Part shown: positions 2,427 through 39,615 of the stretch, piece after piece
How the letters are laid out: each line of letters begins with the position of its first letter
Position numbering within the stretch: the first letter of the stretch is position 1
NCBI GenBank assembly: GCA_019456305.1
Contig: VRUD01000036.1
Span: 1 to 40,446, forward strand
DNA: 40,446 bases
Origin: Cytophagales bacterium
GTDB lineage: Bacteria > Bacteroidota > Bacteroidia > Cytophagales > VRUD01
Direction: 5' to 3'
Made by a program: the position numbers and the translations under genes
Notes under the pieces: model-generated
Told to the model about the DNA's origin: nothing
Seen by the model: the letters and a program-made list of their open reading frames with translations, nothing else
Database searches by the model: none

Positions 2427-4637
2427 ATGCCAACTCCACACCAAATCCTAAAAGAAAGTTTCGGATTCTCTGAATTTCGTGACAAGCAACAGCAGATCAT
2501 TGAATCGGTATTAAACGGCAAAGATAGCTTAGTGCTGATGCCCACGGGTGGAGGCAAATCACTTTGCTACCAGATCCCGGCATTGGTCTTTGAGGGGCTG
2601 ACGGTGGTTGTTTCGCCATTGATCGCATTGATGAAAGACCAGGTAGATGCGCTAAAGCTCAACGGAATTGATGCGGCTTTTTTAAATTCTACATTAAGCT
2701 ACGGGGAACAAGATCAAATAACAGCAAACCTGAAAGCCAACAAAATAAAGCTGCTTTATATTGCCCCTGAGCGCTTGTTTTCCCGGGAAATGCAATTTCT
2801 AAATTTTCTCAAATCACTATCCCTACCTGCCGACCTGTCCCGTGCCGAAGGTCGGGAAGCATCAGCGCAGGTAGGAATTTCACTATTTGCCATTGACGAA
2901 GCGCATTGCATATCACACTGGGGACATGATTTCAGGCCTGAATACCTCATGCTTTCTAAGTTAAAAAAGGAATTTCCAAAAGTGCCTGTGATAGCGCTTA
3001 CTGCAACCGCAGATGTGCAAACCCGAAAGGATATTCTGCAAAAACTTCAGCTAAATAATCCGGAAACCTTTATATCCAGCTTCAACAGGGAAAACATTCA
3101 TTATTTTATACAACCAAAAAGAAGGAGCTATGACAGGCTCGTTGATTTTCTTAGGCAGCATGAAGATGAATCAGGTATTGTGTATGTGTTGTCAAGGAAG
3201 TCGGCAGAATATACAGCAGAAGACCTTCAGAATGACGGATTTTCTGCTAAACCATACCATGCAGGATTAGACAAAGACATACGCGATAAGCACCATGAAC
3301 TTTTTATCAAAGACCAGGTAAAGATCATTGTAGCCACCATTGCCTTTGGAATGGGGATTGACAAATCCAACGTCCGCTTTGTGGCACACATGGACTTGCC
3401 CAAAAACATAGAAAGCTATTACCAGGAAACAGGCAGGGCGGGACGAGACGGGATTAAAAGTGAAGCCCTGCTATTTTACAGCTATGCCGATGTCATCAAA
3501 CTAAAAAAATTCGTAGAAATTGAAGATAACAAGGAGCAATCTGCCATTATGCTGCGCAAGCTTGATAAAATGGCTGATTACTGCCAATCAAAAAAGTGCA
3601 GGAGAAAATACATGCTGGAATATTTCGGAGAAACTTACCCGCATGAGAACTGTGATTCCTGTGATATCTGTCTTGACAAATATGAAAGATTTGACGGTAC
3701 GGTCATAGCACAAAAGGCCCTTTCTGCAGTAACAAGATTAAACGAAAGGTTCGGTATCAACTATGTCATTGACTTTTTGAGAGGATCTCAGTCGGAAAAG
3801 ATAAAAGAATGGCATAAAAAACTTAAAACCTATGGGATAGGGGCCGAAATAAGCAAAGATGACTGGCGCACGTATATCAGGAATTTGATAGATGAGGAGT
3901 ATCTGGCAGTTACTGAAGGTGAATATCCTGTATTGAACCTGACCCAAAAAAGCTCTCCTGTACTCAATGGGCAGGAAAAAGTGATGTTGGTAAAAAGCGT
4001 TACAAGGGAAACTATAGTTGAACAAACGATGAGCTATGAAGATGAACTGCTTAAAAAGCTCAAAGCCATCCGTTACGAATTATCCATCCAGGAAAATGTG
4101 CCTGCCTATATCATATTTTCAGATGTTACTCTTATAGAACTTTCTACCTACCTGCCTCAGGATTTTGAAGAACTGAAACAGATATCAGGTTTCGGTGAAA
4201 TAAAGCTGGCAAAATATGGAAACCTTTTCCTTGATGCCACCGTCCGATATTGCAGGGAGAAGGATTTGAAGTCTAAAATTCATTATAAAAAGCCAAAACG
4301 CCAAAGAAAAAGCAGACCGGGTTCTGCCACCAAACCCGATACGAAAGTAGAAACTTTTCAACTATTCAAAAACGGGAAAAGCATCCCTGATATTGCTACA
4401 GCAAGAGAATTAGCCACCAGTACCATTGAAGGACATTTAGCTCATTTTATCCTTGATGGACAGATTGAACTAAAAGACCTTGTACCTGCTGAAAAAGTAC
4501 CGGATATTGAGAAAGCCGTCATGCTCCATGGCAGCCAGGCTTTATCGCCAATCAAAAATGAGTTGGGGGATAATTTTAGTTATGGAGAAATAAGGGCAGT
4601 GATAAATCATTTACAGAAGGAGAAGCTGAACGCATAA
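2427..4637 (+). CDS. recQ: ATP-dependent DNA helicase RecQ
   Basis: A 736-residue superfamily 2, 3'-5' DNA helicase acting in recombination and fork repair. Seen in order: Walker A TGGGKS (residues 40-45), DEAH box (157-160) in [25 protein letters not shown], the motif V/VI run with [11 protein letters not shown] and [10 protein letters not shown], a four-Cys zinc site (YCQSKKC...CDSCDIC), an RQC winged helix, an HRDC domain ([14 protein letters not shown]...[13 protein letters not shown]) and a C-terminal helix-turn-helix extension ([24 protein letters not shown]) typical of Bacteroidota and Gram-positive RecQ. I chose ATG 2427; the frame is open to a TTG at 2391, but that lies in a repeat. 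Odd: about 18-22 extra residues before motif II (around 133-150) come from an inserted palindrome, listed separately. The frame is preserved and motif II is intact, so the enzyme may still work. Confidence 0.96.
2822..2875. repeat. Palindromic element inserted in frame in recQ
   Basis: Perfect outer arms CCTACCTGC (2822-2830) and GCAGGTAGG (2867-2875), plus inner arms CGACCT (2831-2836) and AGGTCG (2849-2854). Translated in frame it gives [17 protein letters not shown], low-complexity residues absent from typical RecQ just before the DEAH strand. TCACTAT flanks the region at 2814-2820 and 2880-2886, exactly 66 nt apart, possibly a target duplication. Related CCTGCC/GGCAGG arms recur at about 32147 and 33833. 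Confidence 0.7.
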
Positions 4638-18975: not shown

Positions 18976-18983
18976 TACCTTCG
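18976..18983 (+). promoter_or_regulatory. Candidate promoter of the DEAD-box helicase
   Basis: TACCTTCG is one base from TAnnTTTG and sits in the usual TTGCCTACCTTCGC context. Transcription would begin near 18990, so the MITE at 19001-19090 would be copied whole into the 5' leader. Confidence 0.5.
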
Positions 18984-19000
18984 CGGTTTATTTAACAAAC

Positions 19001-19090
19001 GGGCATCTCTAAAAACTACATATTTTTTAAAACACACCCCTTGCCCCTCTTGATAGAGGGGAATATATGGTGTAGTTTTTAGAGATGCCC
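19001..19090 (+). mobile_element. 90-bp palindromic MITE, copy 1
   Basis: Perfect 20-bp terminal inverted repeats (GGGCATCTCTAAAAACTACA at 19001-19020 and its complement at 19071-19090) enclose an inner hairpin (CCCCTCT/AGAGGGG, 19044-19061). AAAC flanks both ends (18997-19000 and 19091-19094), a 4-bp target duplication. It is the exact reverse complement of the copy at 36608-36697. No coding capacity; it would need a transposase in trans. Its right terminal repeat contains the helicase ATG (19085-19087). Confidence 0.92.
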
Positions 19091-20806
19091 AAACATATAT
19101 TGAATAACTTCAGCAAGCTGGGACTCTCACTTTCGATTATTGAAGTCCTTGATCAACTCGGGTTCGAAAACCCAACTCCCGTACAGGAAAAAGCCATTCC
19201 AATTTTATTGGGCAATGATCCAACGGATTTTATTGGGCTTGCACAAACCGGAACAGGAAAAACTGCCGCATTTTGTCTTCCATTAATTGACCTGATCGAT
19301 ATAAACTATAAGGCTACGCAGGCCCTTATTATGGCTCCAACACGTGAGTTGGGACAACAAACAGCTCAGGAGTTAGTTCGTTTTTCTAAAAACAACAAAA
19401 ACCTCAATGTAGAAGTGGTTTATGGTGGTGCGGCCATTATCAATCAAATAAAAGCGCTTAAAAAACCTACCCAGGTCATAGTGGCCACTCCCGGCCGGTT
19501 ATTGGATCTGATCAAACGAAAGGTCGTGAAGCTTGAAAGTGTCAGGTATGTAGTGTTAGACGAGGCTGATGAAATGCTCAACATGGGTTTTAAGGATGAT
19601 ATTGATAAAATCCTTTCATACACCCTTAAAGACAGGGTGATCTGGTTGTTTGCTGCAACCATGCCTCCTGAGATTCGAAAGATCATTAAAAAGTACATGG
19701 ATACACCACAGGAGGTATCCATCAATACACAGGAAAAGATCAACAAGGATATATCTCATAAATATGTGATTACCAAAACAGCCAATAAAATACCTGCACT
19801 AAGGCGATTCCTGGACTTGCAACCGGACATGCGGGGCGTCATGTTTTGCCGTACCAAATGGGAAACCCAGAAGATCTCCGATGACCTTGGCAACCTCGGT
19901 TATGCGGTAGAGGCCCTTCATGGGGACCTTTCGCAAGCACAAAGGGATGCGGTTATGAAGCGATTCAAGACTCGCTCGATGCAATTGCTCATTGCAACAG
20001 ATGTAGCTGCACGGGGTATTGATGTCATAGACCTGACGCACGTGCTCCACCACACCCTTCCCGACCAGTTGGATATCTATACCCACCGAAGTGGAAGAAC
20101 CGCGCGTGCCGGTAAGAAAGGTATTTCGCTTGCTTTTATCAATCCACGCGAAGGAAGGCGGATTGCAGAGCTGGAAAGGAAGATCCAGGTCAGGTTTGAG
20201 CGCATTGAAGTACCGGGTATTGAGGAGTTAAAATCCAGCCGCATCAACAACTGGGCAACCCTGATCATCAATACGAAGGTTGATGACCGGGCCGGAGATA
20301 TATTGCACGACCTTCACGGCCAGTTCGCCCATCTAAGTAAAGAAGATCTACTAAAACGACTGATCACAACCCAATTAGACCATCTGATGATCCATCCTGA
20401 TGGTTCCCGGAATGCGGAACAGGCAGATCTCAATGAAACGTCCGGAGGATCACCCGGAAAACGCGATAATAGCCGGTTTCATCGCTACTTTGTCAACATA
20501 GGATCGATTGATGGGATGACGAAAGCTGATCTTATTCATTTTTTGTCAGACGTTTCGGGCATAGACCGTAAGTTTTTCGGGGAGTTGACCATGCAAAAAA
20601 ACTGTGCATTTTTAGATGTAGACAAGGCTTACGACAAGGATCTAAGCAGAAGTTTCCAGGGAATTGAAATTGAAGGCCGCAACATTCGTGTAAACAGGGA
20701 TGATGATGGAAACAGGCGCCCGAAAGCATTTTCGTTTAAGAAAAAGTTCAAAGGCAAGCGCAAAAGCTCAAAACAGGATTTTCATCGTTCGGGAAAAAGA
20801 AGATGA
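19085..20806 (+). CDS. DEAD-box RNA helicase (DeaD/CsdA-like)
   Basis: A 573-residue ATP-dependent RNA helicase. Motifs in order: Q motif NPTPVQEKAIP, AQTGTGKTAAF, PTRELGQQ, TPGRLLDL, DEAD in VLDEADEMLNMGF, motif III, FCRTKWETQ, ATDVAARGIDV and HRSGRTARAG. A DbpA-type RNA-binding domain follows (FVNIGSIDGMTKADLIHFLSDVSGI) and a basic tail (KKKFKGKRKSS). It probably works in ribosome assembly or cold/mRNA remodelling. Odd points: motif III reads FAAT rather than FSAT, and the only ATG start lies inside the MITE terminal repeat. Before the insertion translation could have begun at the in-frame TTG at 19100. The usual family N-terminus starts about at NNFSKLGLS. Confidence 0.93.
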   Translation: MPKHILNNFSKLGLSLSIIEVLDQLGFENPTPVQEKAIPILLGNDPTDFIGLAQTGTGKTAAFCLPLIDLIDINYKATQALIMAPTRELGQQTAQELVRFSKNNKNLNVEVVYGGAAIINQIKALKKPTQVIVATPGRLLDLIKRKVVKLESVRYVVLDEADEMLNMGFKDDIDKILSYTLKDRVIWLFAATMPPEIRKIIKKYMDTPQEVSINTQEKINKDISHKYVITKTANKIPALRRFLDLQPDMRGVMFCRTKWETQKISDDLGNLGYAVEALHGDLSQAQRDAVMKRFKTRSMQLLIATDVAARGIDVIDLTHVLHHTLPDQLDIYTHRSGRTARAGKKGISLAFINPREGRRIAELERKIQVRFERIEVPGIEELKSSRINNWATLIINTKVDDRAGDILHDLHGQFAHLSKEDLLKRLITTQLDHLMIHPDGSRNAEQADLNETSGGSPGKRDNSRFHRYFVNIGSIDGMTKADLIHFLSDVSGIDRKFFGELTMQKNCAFLDVDKAYDKDLSRSFQGIEIEGRNIRVNRDDDGNRRPKAFSFKKKFKGKRKSSKQDFHRSGKRR

Positions 20807-36607: not shown

Positions 36608-36697
36608 GGGCATCTCTAAAAACTACACCATATATTCCCCTCTATCAAGAGGGGCAAGGGGTGTGTTTTAAAAAATATGTAGTTTTTAGAGATGCCC
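36608..36697 (-). mobile_element. 90-bp palindromic MITE, copy 2 (inverted)
   Basis: Exactly the reverse complement of 19001-19090 over all 90 bases. TATA is duplicated on both sides (36604-36607 and 36698-36701). Its last base becomes the final G of the M16 gene's TAG stop (36699-36697 on the minus strand). Pre-insertion sequence would read CTA TAA, so the old stop was TAA at the same place and the protein is unchanged. Confidence 0.92.
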
Positions 36698-39615
36698 TAT
36701 AGATTGTCAATATCCAGCACTTTTATTTTACCATAATCCAAATCTTTGATCCTGTGTTTGATTAAATATTGATCACCTACCAACATAATGATCATTTTAT
36801 CGGGTTGAAGGTACTTTTTTGCAAGGGCATTGATCTCATCTTTTGTTATGCTATTTAAAATTTTGTTCTGTTGATCCAGATAATCATCAGGCAGATCATG
36901 CTCTAATATTTCTAATAAGAAAAAGGCTTTATCAAAAATTGTTTCATAATCTAAAACCTGGCTATTTAACAGAGAATTTTTTGTAAATTCAAGCTCCTCA
37001 TCAGTTATACCTTCATCTACGTATTTATGTAGTTCATTCATAATTTCTATAACAGTCCGTTTTGTAGCACGAAATTTCACGCTGGTAGATACAGCAAAAG
37101 GGCCTGTATAATTTGAGCCTGAAAAATACGATCTTGCACCATAAGTAAAACCTTTTTTTTCTCTGAGATTCAAATTCAACCTGCTATTAAAAGAGCCTCC
37201 TAAAGCAAAATTCATGAGCTTGCATTTATAATAATCTCCCGCAAAATCATAGGGTAAAGATAAATAACCAATGCGGACCTGGGTTTGTTTAGTTACTTCC
37301 TTATGGATAAGGTATATCTGATTTTGTTCTGAAACCGGGAAGTCTTCTTTTTTAAATTCCGGAACGGCAACTTTTTTAGCCTTCCAGCTTTTCAGAAAAT
37401 CAAGCTTTGGCATAATTTCTTCCTGGGATATATCGCCCACAATAACCAATTTTGTAACAGAAGGTGAATAATAGTTTTCGTAAAACTCGTTGATATCATT
37501 TAATGTAATTAATGCTACAGATTTAGAAGTACCTGTATAAAAAGAACCCAAAATGGTTTTGCCGTATAATAATTTATTAAAAGATTTAAATGCTGTAAGG
37601 CCTGCACTATACTTTTGATTTCTAATACTTTCTTTAAGCTGTTTCTTTTCCCTTTTAAAATCTTTGGGAGTAAAATTAGGGCTGAGCAGCTTTTCTTCCA
37701 GCAGCTTTAATGTTTCATCTATATTTTTGGTGAGTGATTCAATAAATATGGTAGTGTTATCTGTTCCTGCAAAAAATGAAATATCACTGCCTAATCTGTC
37801 AAGCGCTGCGCTGAATTGCTCAGAGGTATAGTTTTGGGTTGCTTCTCCCATCATTATTGCGGTAAAATTTGCTCCCCCTTGTTTAGTACCTTTGCCTGCT
37901 TCCAGTAAATGCCCGCCTTCAATTTCCATGATCATGTTAATTTTTGGTATCTCAGACGTTTTTGTACCTATGATCTTTAATCCGTTATCAAAATTTACTT
38001 TATAATATTCAGGAATTACGGGAACTTTTGATTCACCTGCTTTTGGTTTTGTACTCCTGTCAAAATTATCAACCGGAGGTTCATATTTCAAGGTAACAAA
38101 GAGAGGGTCTTCTTTAGATTTTACATCTTTATAGGGATTAATGCTTTTTTTCTCAAATTTTTTCCTTTCTTCACCTGGTTTAGGAGGTTTAGGGGGTAGT
38201 ATGTTAACAATTGCTGCATTTTTGTTTTTAATGTATTTATTGAATACCCTTAAAACATCTTCTTTGGTTACTTTTTCGTACCTGTTTATCTCTTCATTCA
38301 TATTATATGATTTTTTATCATACATATGCCATTGTGTGAGAAAAAATGATTTATTCAGAATGCTTTGTAAACCGCTAATTAAACCAGAGGTATAAATAGA
38401 TTTTGCCCTGAGCAATTCATCATCTGTGATGCCTTTTTTGTCAAAATCATCTATTGTTTTCTTCATAAGCTGCTCAACTTCATTAAGGGAAAGAGCGCCT
38501 TCCATCCTTGGATTATATGCCGTAACATACAACCAAAATTCACCTGATAATTCCTTGCTATTATTAAATATAAATGCGTTAGTCGCTTTTTCTGAATCTA
38601 CAAAATTTTTATAAAGTAAAGAACTTTTACCACCACCCATTATTTCACTAAGCAATTCTAATGCAGGTTCATCGCGATGATATGAAGGCGCTGTTGGAAA
38701 AACCATCAAGGTTCTGGGCATAAAAATTTCGTCAATGGAATTTGCATATTTGTCAACAGGTATTCTGGGAACATTAGGCATTTGCTTTTCAACCTCTGGC
38801 CCTCTTTTTATAGGGCCAAAATATTTTTCTGTTAATTTCAGCACTTCTTTTGGATCAATATCTCCGGCAACGTTCAATATCGCGTTGTTGGGACCATACC
38901 ATCGTAAAAAGAACTTTTTTACATCGTCAAGTTCAGCTCTGTCCAGGTCATCAACATATCCGATCACAGGCCAGCTATAAGGATGGCCGGCAGGATATAA
39001 TGTTTGACCTAAAATTTCCCACTGCAGCCCGTAAGGCGGATCCAATTGATTTTGTTGCTTTTCATTCTTTACCGTTGATCTCTGGATCTCAAATTTTTCC
39101 TTTGTCAGAGAATCCAGCAGTAAACCCATCCTGTCTGCCTCTAACCATAAAGCCGTTTCAAGCTGATTGCCCGGAATCATCTCAAAATAAACCGTCATGT
39201 CATCTGTTGTAAATCCATTGTTAGCTCCTCCGGATTCCGATACAATCTTAAAATGCTCATCATCTGCAACGTTTTTTGAACCCTGAAACATCATGTGTTC
39301 AAAAAAATGAGCAAAACCAGACTTTCCTGGTACCTCCCTTGCCGAACCTACATGATATGTGATCTGTACGAGCGCTATCGGATCAGAATGATCTTCGTGC
39401 ATGATCAATGTAAGACCATTTGGTAATTGCCACTTTTCGTAAGAAATTTTTATTTCTCCCGGATCCGCTTCTACTTTCTCAATAAGCTGAGATTTCGTAA
39501 TATCTCCCGATGTTGTCTGGCTAAAAAGTAACGTAATTGAACATAGGGAAAAAATAATGATTGCTGCAAAAGAAACAATGATCTTGTACAACTGGCTGAT
39601 TTGTAATTTGTTCAT
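36697..39615 (-). CDS. M16 family zinc metalloprotease (two-domain, exported)
   Basis: A 972-residue protease with an N-terminal signal/anchor (MNKLQISQLYKIIVSFAAII...). The inverted zinc motif HFFEH is at 103-107 in SGFAHFFEHMMFQGSKN, and the N-terminal entry WQLPNGLTLIMHEDHSDP is typical of M16B. The second half repeats the fold without the motif (FDNGLKIIGTKTSEIPKINM...), as in PqqL/pitrilysin-type proteins that form a clam-shell cavity and degrade peptides in the periplasm. LREKKGFTYGARSYF is the conserved RxxxxYG loop. Its stop codon is completed by the MITE. A low-complexity CCAGTAAC repeat lies right upstream. Confidence 0.92.
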   Translation of the reverse strand: MNKLQISQLYKIIVSFAAIIIFSLCSITLLFSQTTSGDITKSQLIEKVEADPGEIKISYEKWQLPNGLTLIMHEDHSDPIALVQITYHVGSAREVPGKSGFAHFFEHMMFQGSKNVADDEHFKIVSESGGANNGFTTDDMTVYFEMIPGNQLETALWLEADRMGLLLDSLTKEKFEIQRSTVKNEKQQNQLDPPYGLQWEILGQTLYPAGHPYSWPVIGYVDDLDRAELDDVKKFFLRWYGPNNAILNVAGDIDPKEVLKLTEKYFGPIKRGPEVEKQMPNVPRIPVDKYANSIDEIFMPRTLMVFPTAPSYHRDEPALELLSEIMGGGKSSLLYKNFVDSEKATNAFIFNNSKELSGEFWLYVTAYNPRMEGALSLNEVEQLMKKTIDDFDKKGITDDELLRAKSIYTSGLISGLQSILNKSFFLTQWHMYDKKSYNMNEEINRYEKVTKEDVLRVFNKYIKNKNAAIVNILPPKPPKPGEERKKFEKKSINPYKDVKSKEDPLFVTLKYEPPVDNFDRSTKPKAGESKVPVIPEYYKVNFDNGLKIIGTKTSEIPKINMIMEIEGGHLLEAGKGTKQGGANFTAIMMGEATQNYTSEQFSAALDRLGSDISFFAGTDNTTIFIESLTKNIDETLKLLEEKLLSPNFTPKDFKREKKQLKESIRNQKYSAGLTAFKSFNKLLYGKTILGSFYTGTSKSVALITLNDINEFYENYYSPSVTKLVIVGDISQEEIMPKLDFLKSWKAKKVAVPEFKKEDFPVSEQNQIYLIHKEVTKQTQVRIGYLSLPYDFAGDYYKCKLMNFALGGSFNSRLNLNLREKKGFTYGARSYFSGSNYTGPFAVSTSVKFRATKRTVIEIMNELHKYVDEGITDEELEFTKNSLLNSQVLDYETIFDKAFFLLEILEHDLPDDYLDQQNKILNSITKDEINALAKKYLQPDKMIIMLVGDQYLIKHRIKDLDYGKIKVLDIDNL

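What the first reader, a model, noticed from the sequence alone, without database searches (positions are those of the whole stretch)
19001..19090. A MITE supplies the start codon of a DEAD-box helicase and buries it in a hairpin
The ATG at 19085 lies in the right terminal repeat (AGAGATGCCC), which pairs with GGGCATCTCT at 19001. The likely promoter box (18976) is upstream, so the leader RNA would fold into a ~90-nt hairpin hiding the start. Without the element the local sequence has no ATG, only the in-frame TTG at 19100. Expression may be low, temperature-dependent (apt for a cold-type RNA helicase) or restarted from the TTG.
Basis: partly seen in the sequence, partly recalled or inferred. 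Interest (0 to 1): 0.8.

Follow-up and report, generated by a model that had tools for sequence, protein, structure and literature searches.

The report
Transposon hairpin inserted in helicase leader
A common 90-base mobile element recently landed in the short untranslated leader of a bacterial RNA-helicase gene; it adds an unneeded ATG inside a hairpin, while the gene's own older start codon (TTG, shared by its relatives) is still intact just downstream.

Summary
The anatomy is real. Window 19001-19090 is a 90-bp MITE with perfect 20-bp terminal repeats and a 4-bp target duplication (AAAC). It is one of 73 complete copies extracted from the same 4.2-Mb Bacteroidota genome; 57 match one of two consensus sequences exactly. 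The ATG at 19085 lies in the right terminal repeat and would be paired in a 21-bp hairpin. The claim that the element supplies the start codon is not supported. In 77 of 78 homologues the nearest start codon lies 2-4 codons before a conserved Phe, which is where the window's TTG (19100) sits. The two closest relatives (63% and 59% identity) use TTG at that exact codon, with no other start available. The promoter at 18976 is corroborated: removing the element puts it 39 nt before the Phe codon, against 40-42 in close relatives. So a MITE landed in an ~18-nt leader between promoter and UUG, adding a spurious in-frame AUG and a hairpin ending 10 nt before the UUG. Folding predicts the AUG stays paired from 5 to 70 C, so no thermosensor. 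Reduced initiation at UUG is the likeliest effect, but inferred. The gene appears to be the only canonical DEAD-box RNA helicase in the assembly. Mostly ordinary, with a modest regulatory angle.

The parts
18976..18983 (+). Native sigma-A type -7 box TACCTTCG (consensus TAHHTTTG); predicted TSS about 18988
   Evidence: box-to-start spacing without the element matches homologues; -7 element occupies -12 to -5 (PMC6847099)
18997..19000 (.). Left copy of the 4-bp target-site duplication, AAAC
19001..19090 (+). 90-bp MITE, 'GAATATATGG' subtype (19 identical copies in the genome)
19001..19020 (+). Left terminal inverted repeat
19071..19090 (+). Right terminal inverted repeat, holding the ATG
19085..19087 (+). 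In-frame ATG brought by the element; predicted paired, G at -3 and T at -6; judged a spurious upstream start
19091..19094 (.). Right copy of the target-site duplication, AAAC
19100..19102 (+). TTG: ancestral and most likely main start codon of the helicase; A at -3
19100..20806 (+). DEAD-box RNA helicase with DbpA-type RNA-binding domain; the only canonical one found in the assembly
36608..36697 (-). Second window copy of the MITE (TSD TATA), between two minus-strand ORFs; its junction forms the TAG stop of ORF 36697-39615

Best explanation
A recently transposed 90-bp MITE (ends like those of an IS5-family element) inserted into the ~18-nt 5' leader of the helicase gene, between its own promoter (18976-18983) and its ancestral UUG start (19100). 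Shown: the insertion, its TSD, its near-identity to many other copies, and the conservation of promoter spacing and of the UUG position in homologues. Inferred: the mRNA starts near 18988 and carries a ~112-nt leader with a 21-bp hairpin ending 10 nt before the UUG; translation still starts mainly at the UUG, at a rate lowered by the hairpin and the altered upstream context. The in-frame AUG in the right arm is a by-product of the repeat sequence (every outward end reads AUG CCC) and is buried. RNase III trimming of the hairpin is possible but untested.
For: Insertion: 20-bp perfect TIR, TSD AAAC, 73 complete copies, 57 identical to one of two consensus forms, 4-bp TSD in most. Start: in 77 of 78 homologues the start nearest the conserved Phe codon lies 2-4 codons before it (all 78: 65 ATG, 11 TTG, 2 GTG; in 66 of 78 it is the only start between the upstream stop and the Phe); the window's TTG is at -3, its ATG at -8. 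The closest homologues L163 (63%) and L162 (59%) have TTG at exactly this codon; it is the only start available, and L162 has a stop two codons upstream of it. Promoter: 40 of 78 homologues have a perfect TAHHTTTG at -48 to -32 of the Phe codon against 0.028 expected per locus; without the element the window box is at -39, against -40, -41, -42 and -40 in L163, L162, L164 and L166. Folding: opening the region around the AUG costs 24 kcal/mol; opening -10 to +12 of the UUG costs 6.4 with the element and 2.7 without (37 C). In F. johnsoniae, structure near the start lowers initiation, A at -3 and -6 raises it, and extra AUGs near starts are depleted (PMC6847099).
Against: No expression data. No strain-level relative with the empty site was found; the family is represented only by this genome among the relatives searched, and the nearest homologues are 59-63% identical proteins. 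AUG normally initiates better than UUG, so some use of the ATG cannot be excluded. C at -6 and loss of the native A at -12 weaken the UUG context. Bioinformatic folding ignores ribosomes, proteins and processing.
Confidence: 0.75

Rival explanations
1. One reading: the MITE ATG at 19085 has taken over as the real start, giving a 5-residue extension (MPKHI), with expression limited by the hairpin.
For: ATG is in frame and AUG is the stronger codon. Ribosomes or helicases can open hairpins.
Against: Homologues place the start at the TTG. The ATG is predicted paired at all temperatures tested and its opening costs at least 11 kcal/mol at 37 C. Its context is G at -3 and T at -6, and extra AUGs near starts are depleted in Bacteroidetes (PMC6847099).
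Confidence: 0.12
2. The mRNA has a 5' end inside or after the element, through a weak promoter in the MITE (TATTTTTT at 19021, or TAGTTTTT at 19073 with predicted TSS about 19085) or RNase III cleavage of the stem, so the UUG is translated from a hairpin-free leader, in the second case of nearly native length.
For: Two 5-of-6 matches to the -7 consensus lie in the element. Other bacterial MITEs carry outward promoters or are RNase III substrates (Correia: abstract of PMC2649163; BrickBuilt: PMC4596501). A 21-bp perfect stem is long enough for RNase III (own knowledge).
Against: Both boxes lack the near-invariant G, and the 19073 box also has a disfavoured G at position 3. Such 5-of-6 matches occur 7.5 times per kb in the window. 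The native promoter, corroborated by homologues, is intact.
Confidence: 0.22
3. The hairpin has been kept by selection as a regulatory switch (thermosensor or autoregulation by the helicase).
For: The gene appears to be the only canonical DEAD-box RNA helicase in the assembly, so its dose may matter.
Against: The copy is identical to 18 others and looks recent; nothing marks it as selected. The ATG pairing does not change between 5 and 70 C. No relative shares the insertion. No RNA family matches above threshold.
Confidence: 0.04

Closest known systems
Correia repeat enclosed elements (CREE/NEMIS) of Neisseria
   Same: Short MITE with long TIRs, many copies next to genes, transcript folds into one long hairpin, may alter expression of the adjacent gene (PMC2649163, PMC10969869, PMC2229807)
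   Different: Unrelated sequence; CREE effects were shown by experiment, and no promoter, IHF site or RNase III cleavage has been shown here
BrickBuilt and other IS5-like MITEs of Porphyromonas gingivalis
   Same: MITE in the same phylum with IS5-type TIRs, intergenic (PMC4596501)
   Different: BrickBuilt TIR is GAGACCTTCGCA, carries a 23-nt minisatellite and lies 49-591 nt from genes; here the TIR is GGGCATCTCTAAAAACTACA, unit 90 bp, often directly abutting genes
Rickettsia palindromic elements (RPE) and Coxiella QMITE
   Same: MITE bases become part of, or offer codons to, host ORFs (PMC10969869, PMC5896051)
   Different: RPEs sit inside ORFs, and QMITEs were reported not to affect the 5' end of genes with known functions; here the element sits in the 5' leader and probably contributes no codon

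Membership tests
MITE | Short (50 to a few hundred bp), no transposase gene | tested here: met
   90 bp; variants of 47-118 bp
MITE | Terminal inverted repeats | tested here: met
   20 bp, 100% complementary
MITE | Target-site duplication | tested here: met
   AAAC here; longest TSD is exactly 4 bp in 59 of 73 copies
MITE | Multiple dispersed copies | tested here: met
   73 complete copies extracted from one genome
IS5-family-derived MITE | TIRs shared with an autonomous IS5-family element in the genome | tested here: inconclusive
   A truncated 140-aa IS5-like transposase (NF033581, 108 bits, below the 140 cut-off) lies next to an end beginning GGGCATCTCTAAAAACT; no intact copy found
IS5-family-derived MITE | Mobilised in trans by that transposase | not testable with these tools
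   Needs a transposition assay
RNA thermometer | Start region pairing that melts within the growth range | tested here: not met
   ATG unpaired probability at most 0.006 from 5 to 70 C
Bacteroidetes sigma-A promoter (18976) | TAHHTTTG -7 element at a plausible distance from the start | tested here: met
   5 of 6 invariant bases, both H positions satisfied; spacing conserved in homologues once the element is removed
MITE-supplied start codon | Host gene's start codon lies in the element and the ancestral start is lost | tested here: not met
   Ancestral TTG position is intact at 19100

The most novel reading that the evidence does not exclude
The hairpin makes synthesis of this lone DEAD-box helicase depend on RNA unwinding, including by the helicase itself, so a transposon insertion has created an autoregulatory leader in an organism without Shine-Dalgarno-based start selection.
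Probability: 0.04. Interest if true: 0.65.

Novelty: new member of a known kind. Interest (0 to 1): 0.3.

Why it matters
It is a clean natural experiment on start selection in Bacteroidota: an element adds a structured in-frame AUG 15 nt upstream of an intact UUG in a phylum that lacks Shine-Dalgarno sites. It also warns annotators: a gene caller preferring the ATG would start the protein inside a mobile element, whereas homologues show the TTG is original. As biology it is otherwise an ordinary recent MITE insertion.

Tried and rejected
Close relatives with the empty site: none found; the 38 relatives searched besides the window's own genome were all from other families of the order. An exact 36-base piece of the element has no match in genome contigs, and 390 genomes of the order hold only short partial or 72-92% matches outside the window's own genome. 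An autonomous partner IS: only a truncated transposase found. E. coli-type promoter or intrinsic terminator: no sense-strand hit. Known RNA family: only a sub-threshold, meaningless microRNA match. Papers on a MITE supplying a bacterial start codon: three searches found none in the held library, which is not proof of absence. ATG as a general feature: of 146 outward ends, 5 join an in-frame ORF over 200 aa. In the four others an ATG lies 5-29 codons further in; Pfam domains of three of these genes begin beyond it.

Full report
Observation. The 20-bp arms 19001-19020 and 19071-19090 are perfectly complementary and the 20-mer occurs four times in the window, twice per copy, against 0.00 expected. 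The ATG 19085-19087 lies in the right arm and opens a 573-aa ORF coding for a DEAD-box RNA helicase with a DbpA-type RNA-binding domain. Folded alone, the leader gives a 21-bp stem (z -6.2).

What the element is. A search of the window's own genome (4.25 Mb, 159 contigs, 98.4% complete) finds 82 forward and 74 reverse matches to the 15-base end. From the regions fetched, 73 complete elements were extracted: 68 are exactly 90 bp, 38 identical to one consensus and 19 to a second, differing at one base; the window copy belongs to the second. A duplication of exactly 4 bp is the longest in 59 of 73; here it is AAAC/AAAC. The sites are AT-rich, with C before and G after favoured. This is a young MITE family. 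A truncated IS5-family transposase next to an end that shares its first 17 bases (GGGCATCTCTAAAAACT) suggests an IS5-type source, but no intact source is in the assembly. A MITE with similar ends lies in a genome of another family of the order (L247).

Which start codon. Homologues were fetched from the same order and from genome contigs. In 77 of 78 usable homologues the nearest start lies 2-4 codons before a conserved Phe (F of F..LGL); over all 78 it is 65 ATG, 11 TTG, 2 GTG, and in 66 of 78 it is the only start between the upstream stop and the Phe. In the window the TTG at 19100 is 3 codons before that Phe and the ATG at 19085 is 8 codons before it. The two closest homologues, L163 (63%) and L162 (59%), start with TTG at exactly this codon and have no other start available; in L162 a stop lies two codons upstream of the TTG. 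So the TTG is not a fallback left after losing an ATG: it is the inherited start. The ATG came with the MITE, in frame by chance.

Promoter and leader. The Bacteroidetes -7 element TAHHTTTG spans -12 to -5 (PMC6847099). The window's TACCTTCG has 5 of 6 invariant bases and predicts a TSS near 18988. Forty of 78 homologues have a perfect TAHHTTTG 32-48 nt before the Phe codon against 0.028 expected per locus. Removing the element and one AAAC places the window's box at -39; L163, L162, L164 and L166 have -40, -41, -42 and -40. This independently supports the promoter, the TTG and the insertion point. The native leader would be about 18 nt, near the median of 24 nt in F. psychrophilum (PMC9723704); the element lengthens it to about 112 nt.

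Likely effect. Equilibrium folding: the AUG is unpaired with probability 0.006 or less at every temperature from 5 to 70 C, so thermosensing is not predicted. Opening 21 nt around it costs 24 kcal/mol at 37 C. The UUG itself is outside the stem; opening -10 to +12 costs 6.4 kcal/mol with the element and 2.7 without, and a wider -20 to +15 footprint costs 24 because it overlaps the stem. In F. johnsoniae, structure near the start and loss of upstream A lower initiation, and AUGs near the start are depleted (PMC6847099). The AUG has G at -3 and T at -6; the UUG keeps A at -3. The inference is reduced but continuing translation from the UUG. It is not shown.

Alternatives. Weak promoter-like boxes in the element (19021, 19073) lack the near-invariant G, and such 5-of-6 matches occur 7.5 times per kb in the window, but Correia elements and BrickBuilt show that MITEs can carry promoters (PMC2649163 abstract; PMC4596501). 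RNase III cleavage of the stem is plausible. Both would leave the UUG as start with a hairpin-free leader.

Context. Of 146 outward MITE ends, nearly all reading ATG CCC, five run in frame into ORFs of over 200 aa: the helicase, ribosomal protein L4, a methionine sulfoxide reductase, a trypsin-like/TPR protein and an unknown. The four others have a further in-frame ATG 5-29 codons inside, and in the three with Pfam domains the domain begins beyond it. Only the helicase, whose own start is a TTG, looks as if it needs the element's ATG. The helicase is the only canonical DEAD-box RNA helicase found in the assembly: the next-best PF00270 matches are three RecQ-type, RecG, Mfd and PriA, while most genomes of the order have several strong DEAD-box matches.

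Verdict. A real and recent MITE insertion in a leader, correctly seen; the start-codon claim is most likely an annotation illusion. A new member of a known kind (MITE in a 5' leader), interest 0.3.

Noticed in passing
L105:2621-2710: A copy of the same MITE lies between ribosomal protein L3-like and L4 genes (PF00297, PF00573), i.e. a long hairpin inside a ribosomal-protein operon.
   Followed up: partly
window 36608-36697; L131, L142, L092, L115: Five copies sit in the stop codon of an open frame of 150 codons or more; the duplicated 'TA' plus the element's first G makes TAG, so the reading frame still ends at the same codon.
   Followed up: partly
L098:2570-2687 and L103:2611-2728: Two 118-bp copies carry a 28-bp palindromic insert (CCCGCCTGCC...GGCGGGCAGG) in the hairpin loop; L123:2502-2548 is a 47-bp deletion form.
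   Followed up: no
L162-L241 (helicase homologues): A TTG start is used by 11 of 78 homologues of this helicase, including the two closest, with a short conserved promoter-to-start spacing; possibly a kept weak initiation site.
   Followed up: partly
window 19100-20806: The assembly has only one canonical DEAD-box RNA helicase, unusual in its order; a further copy in unassembled sequence cannot be excluded.
   Followed up: partly
L125:2485-2574 and 3365-3454: Two MITE copies 880 bp apart share the same left flank, which looks like a tandem duplication of the region including the element.
   Followed up: no
L120:2541-3474: Three MITE copies within 0.95 kb.
   Followed up: no
L247:1500-1590: A MITE-like element with related ends (GGGCATCTCTAAAAAA...GGTTTTTAGAGATGC) in a genome of another family of the order.
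   Followed up: no
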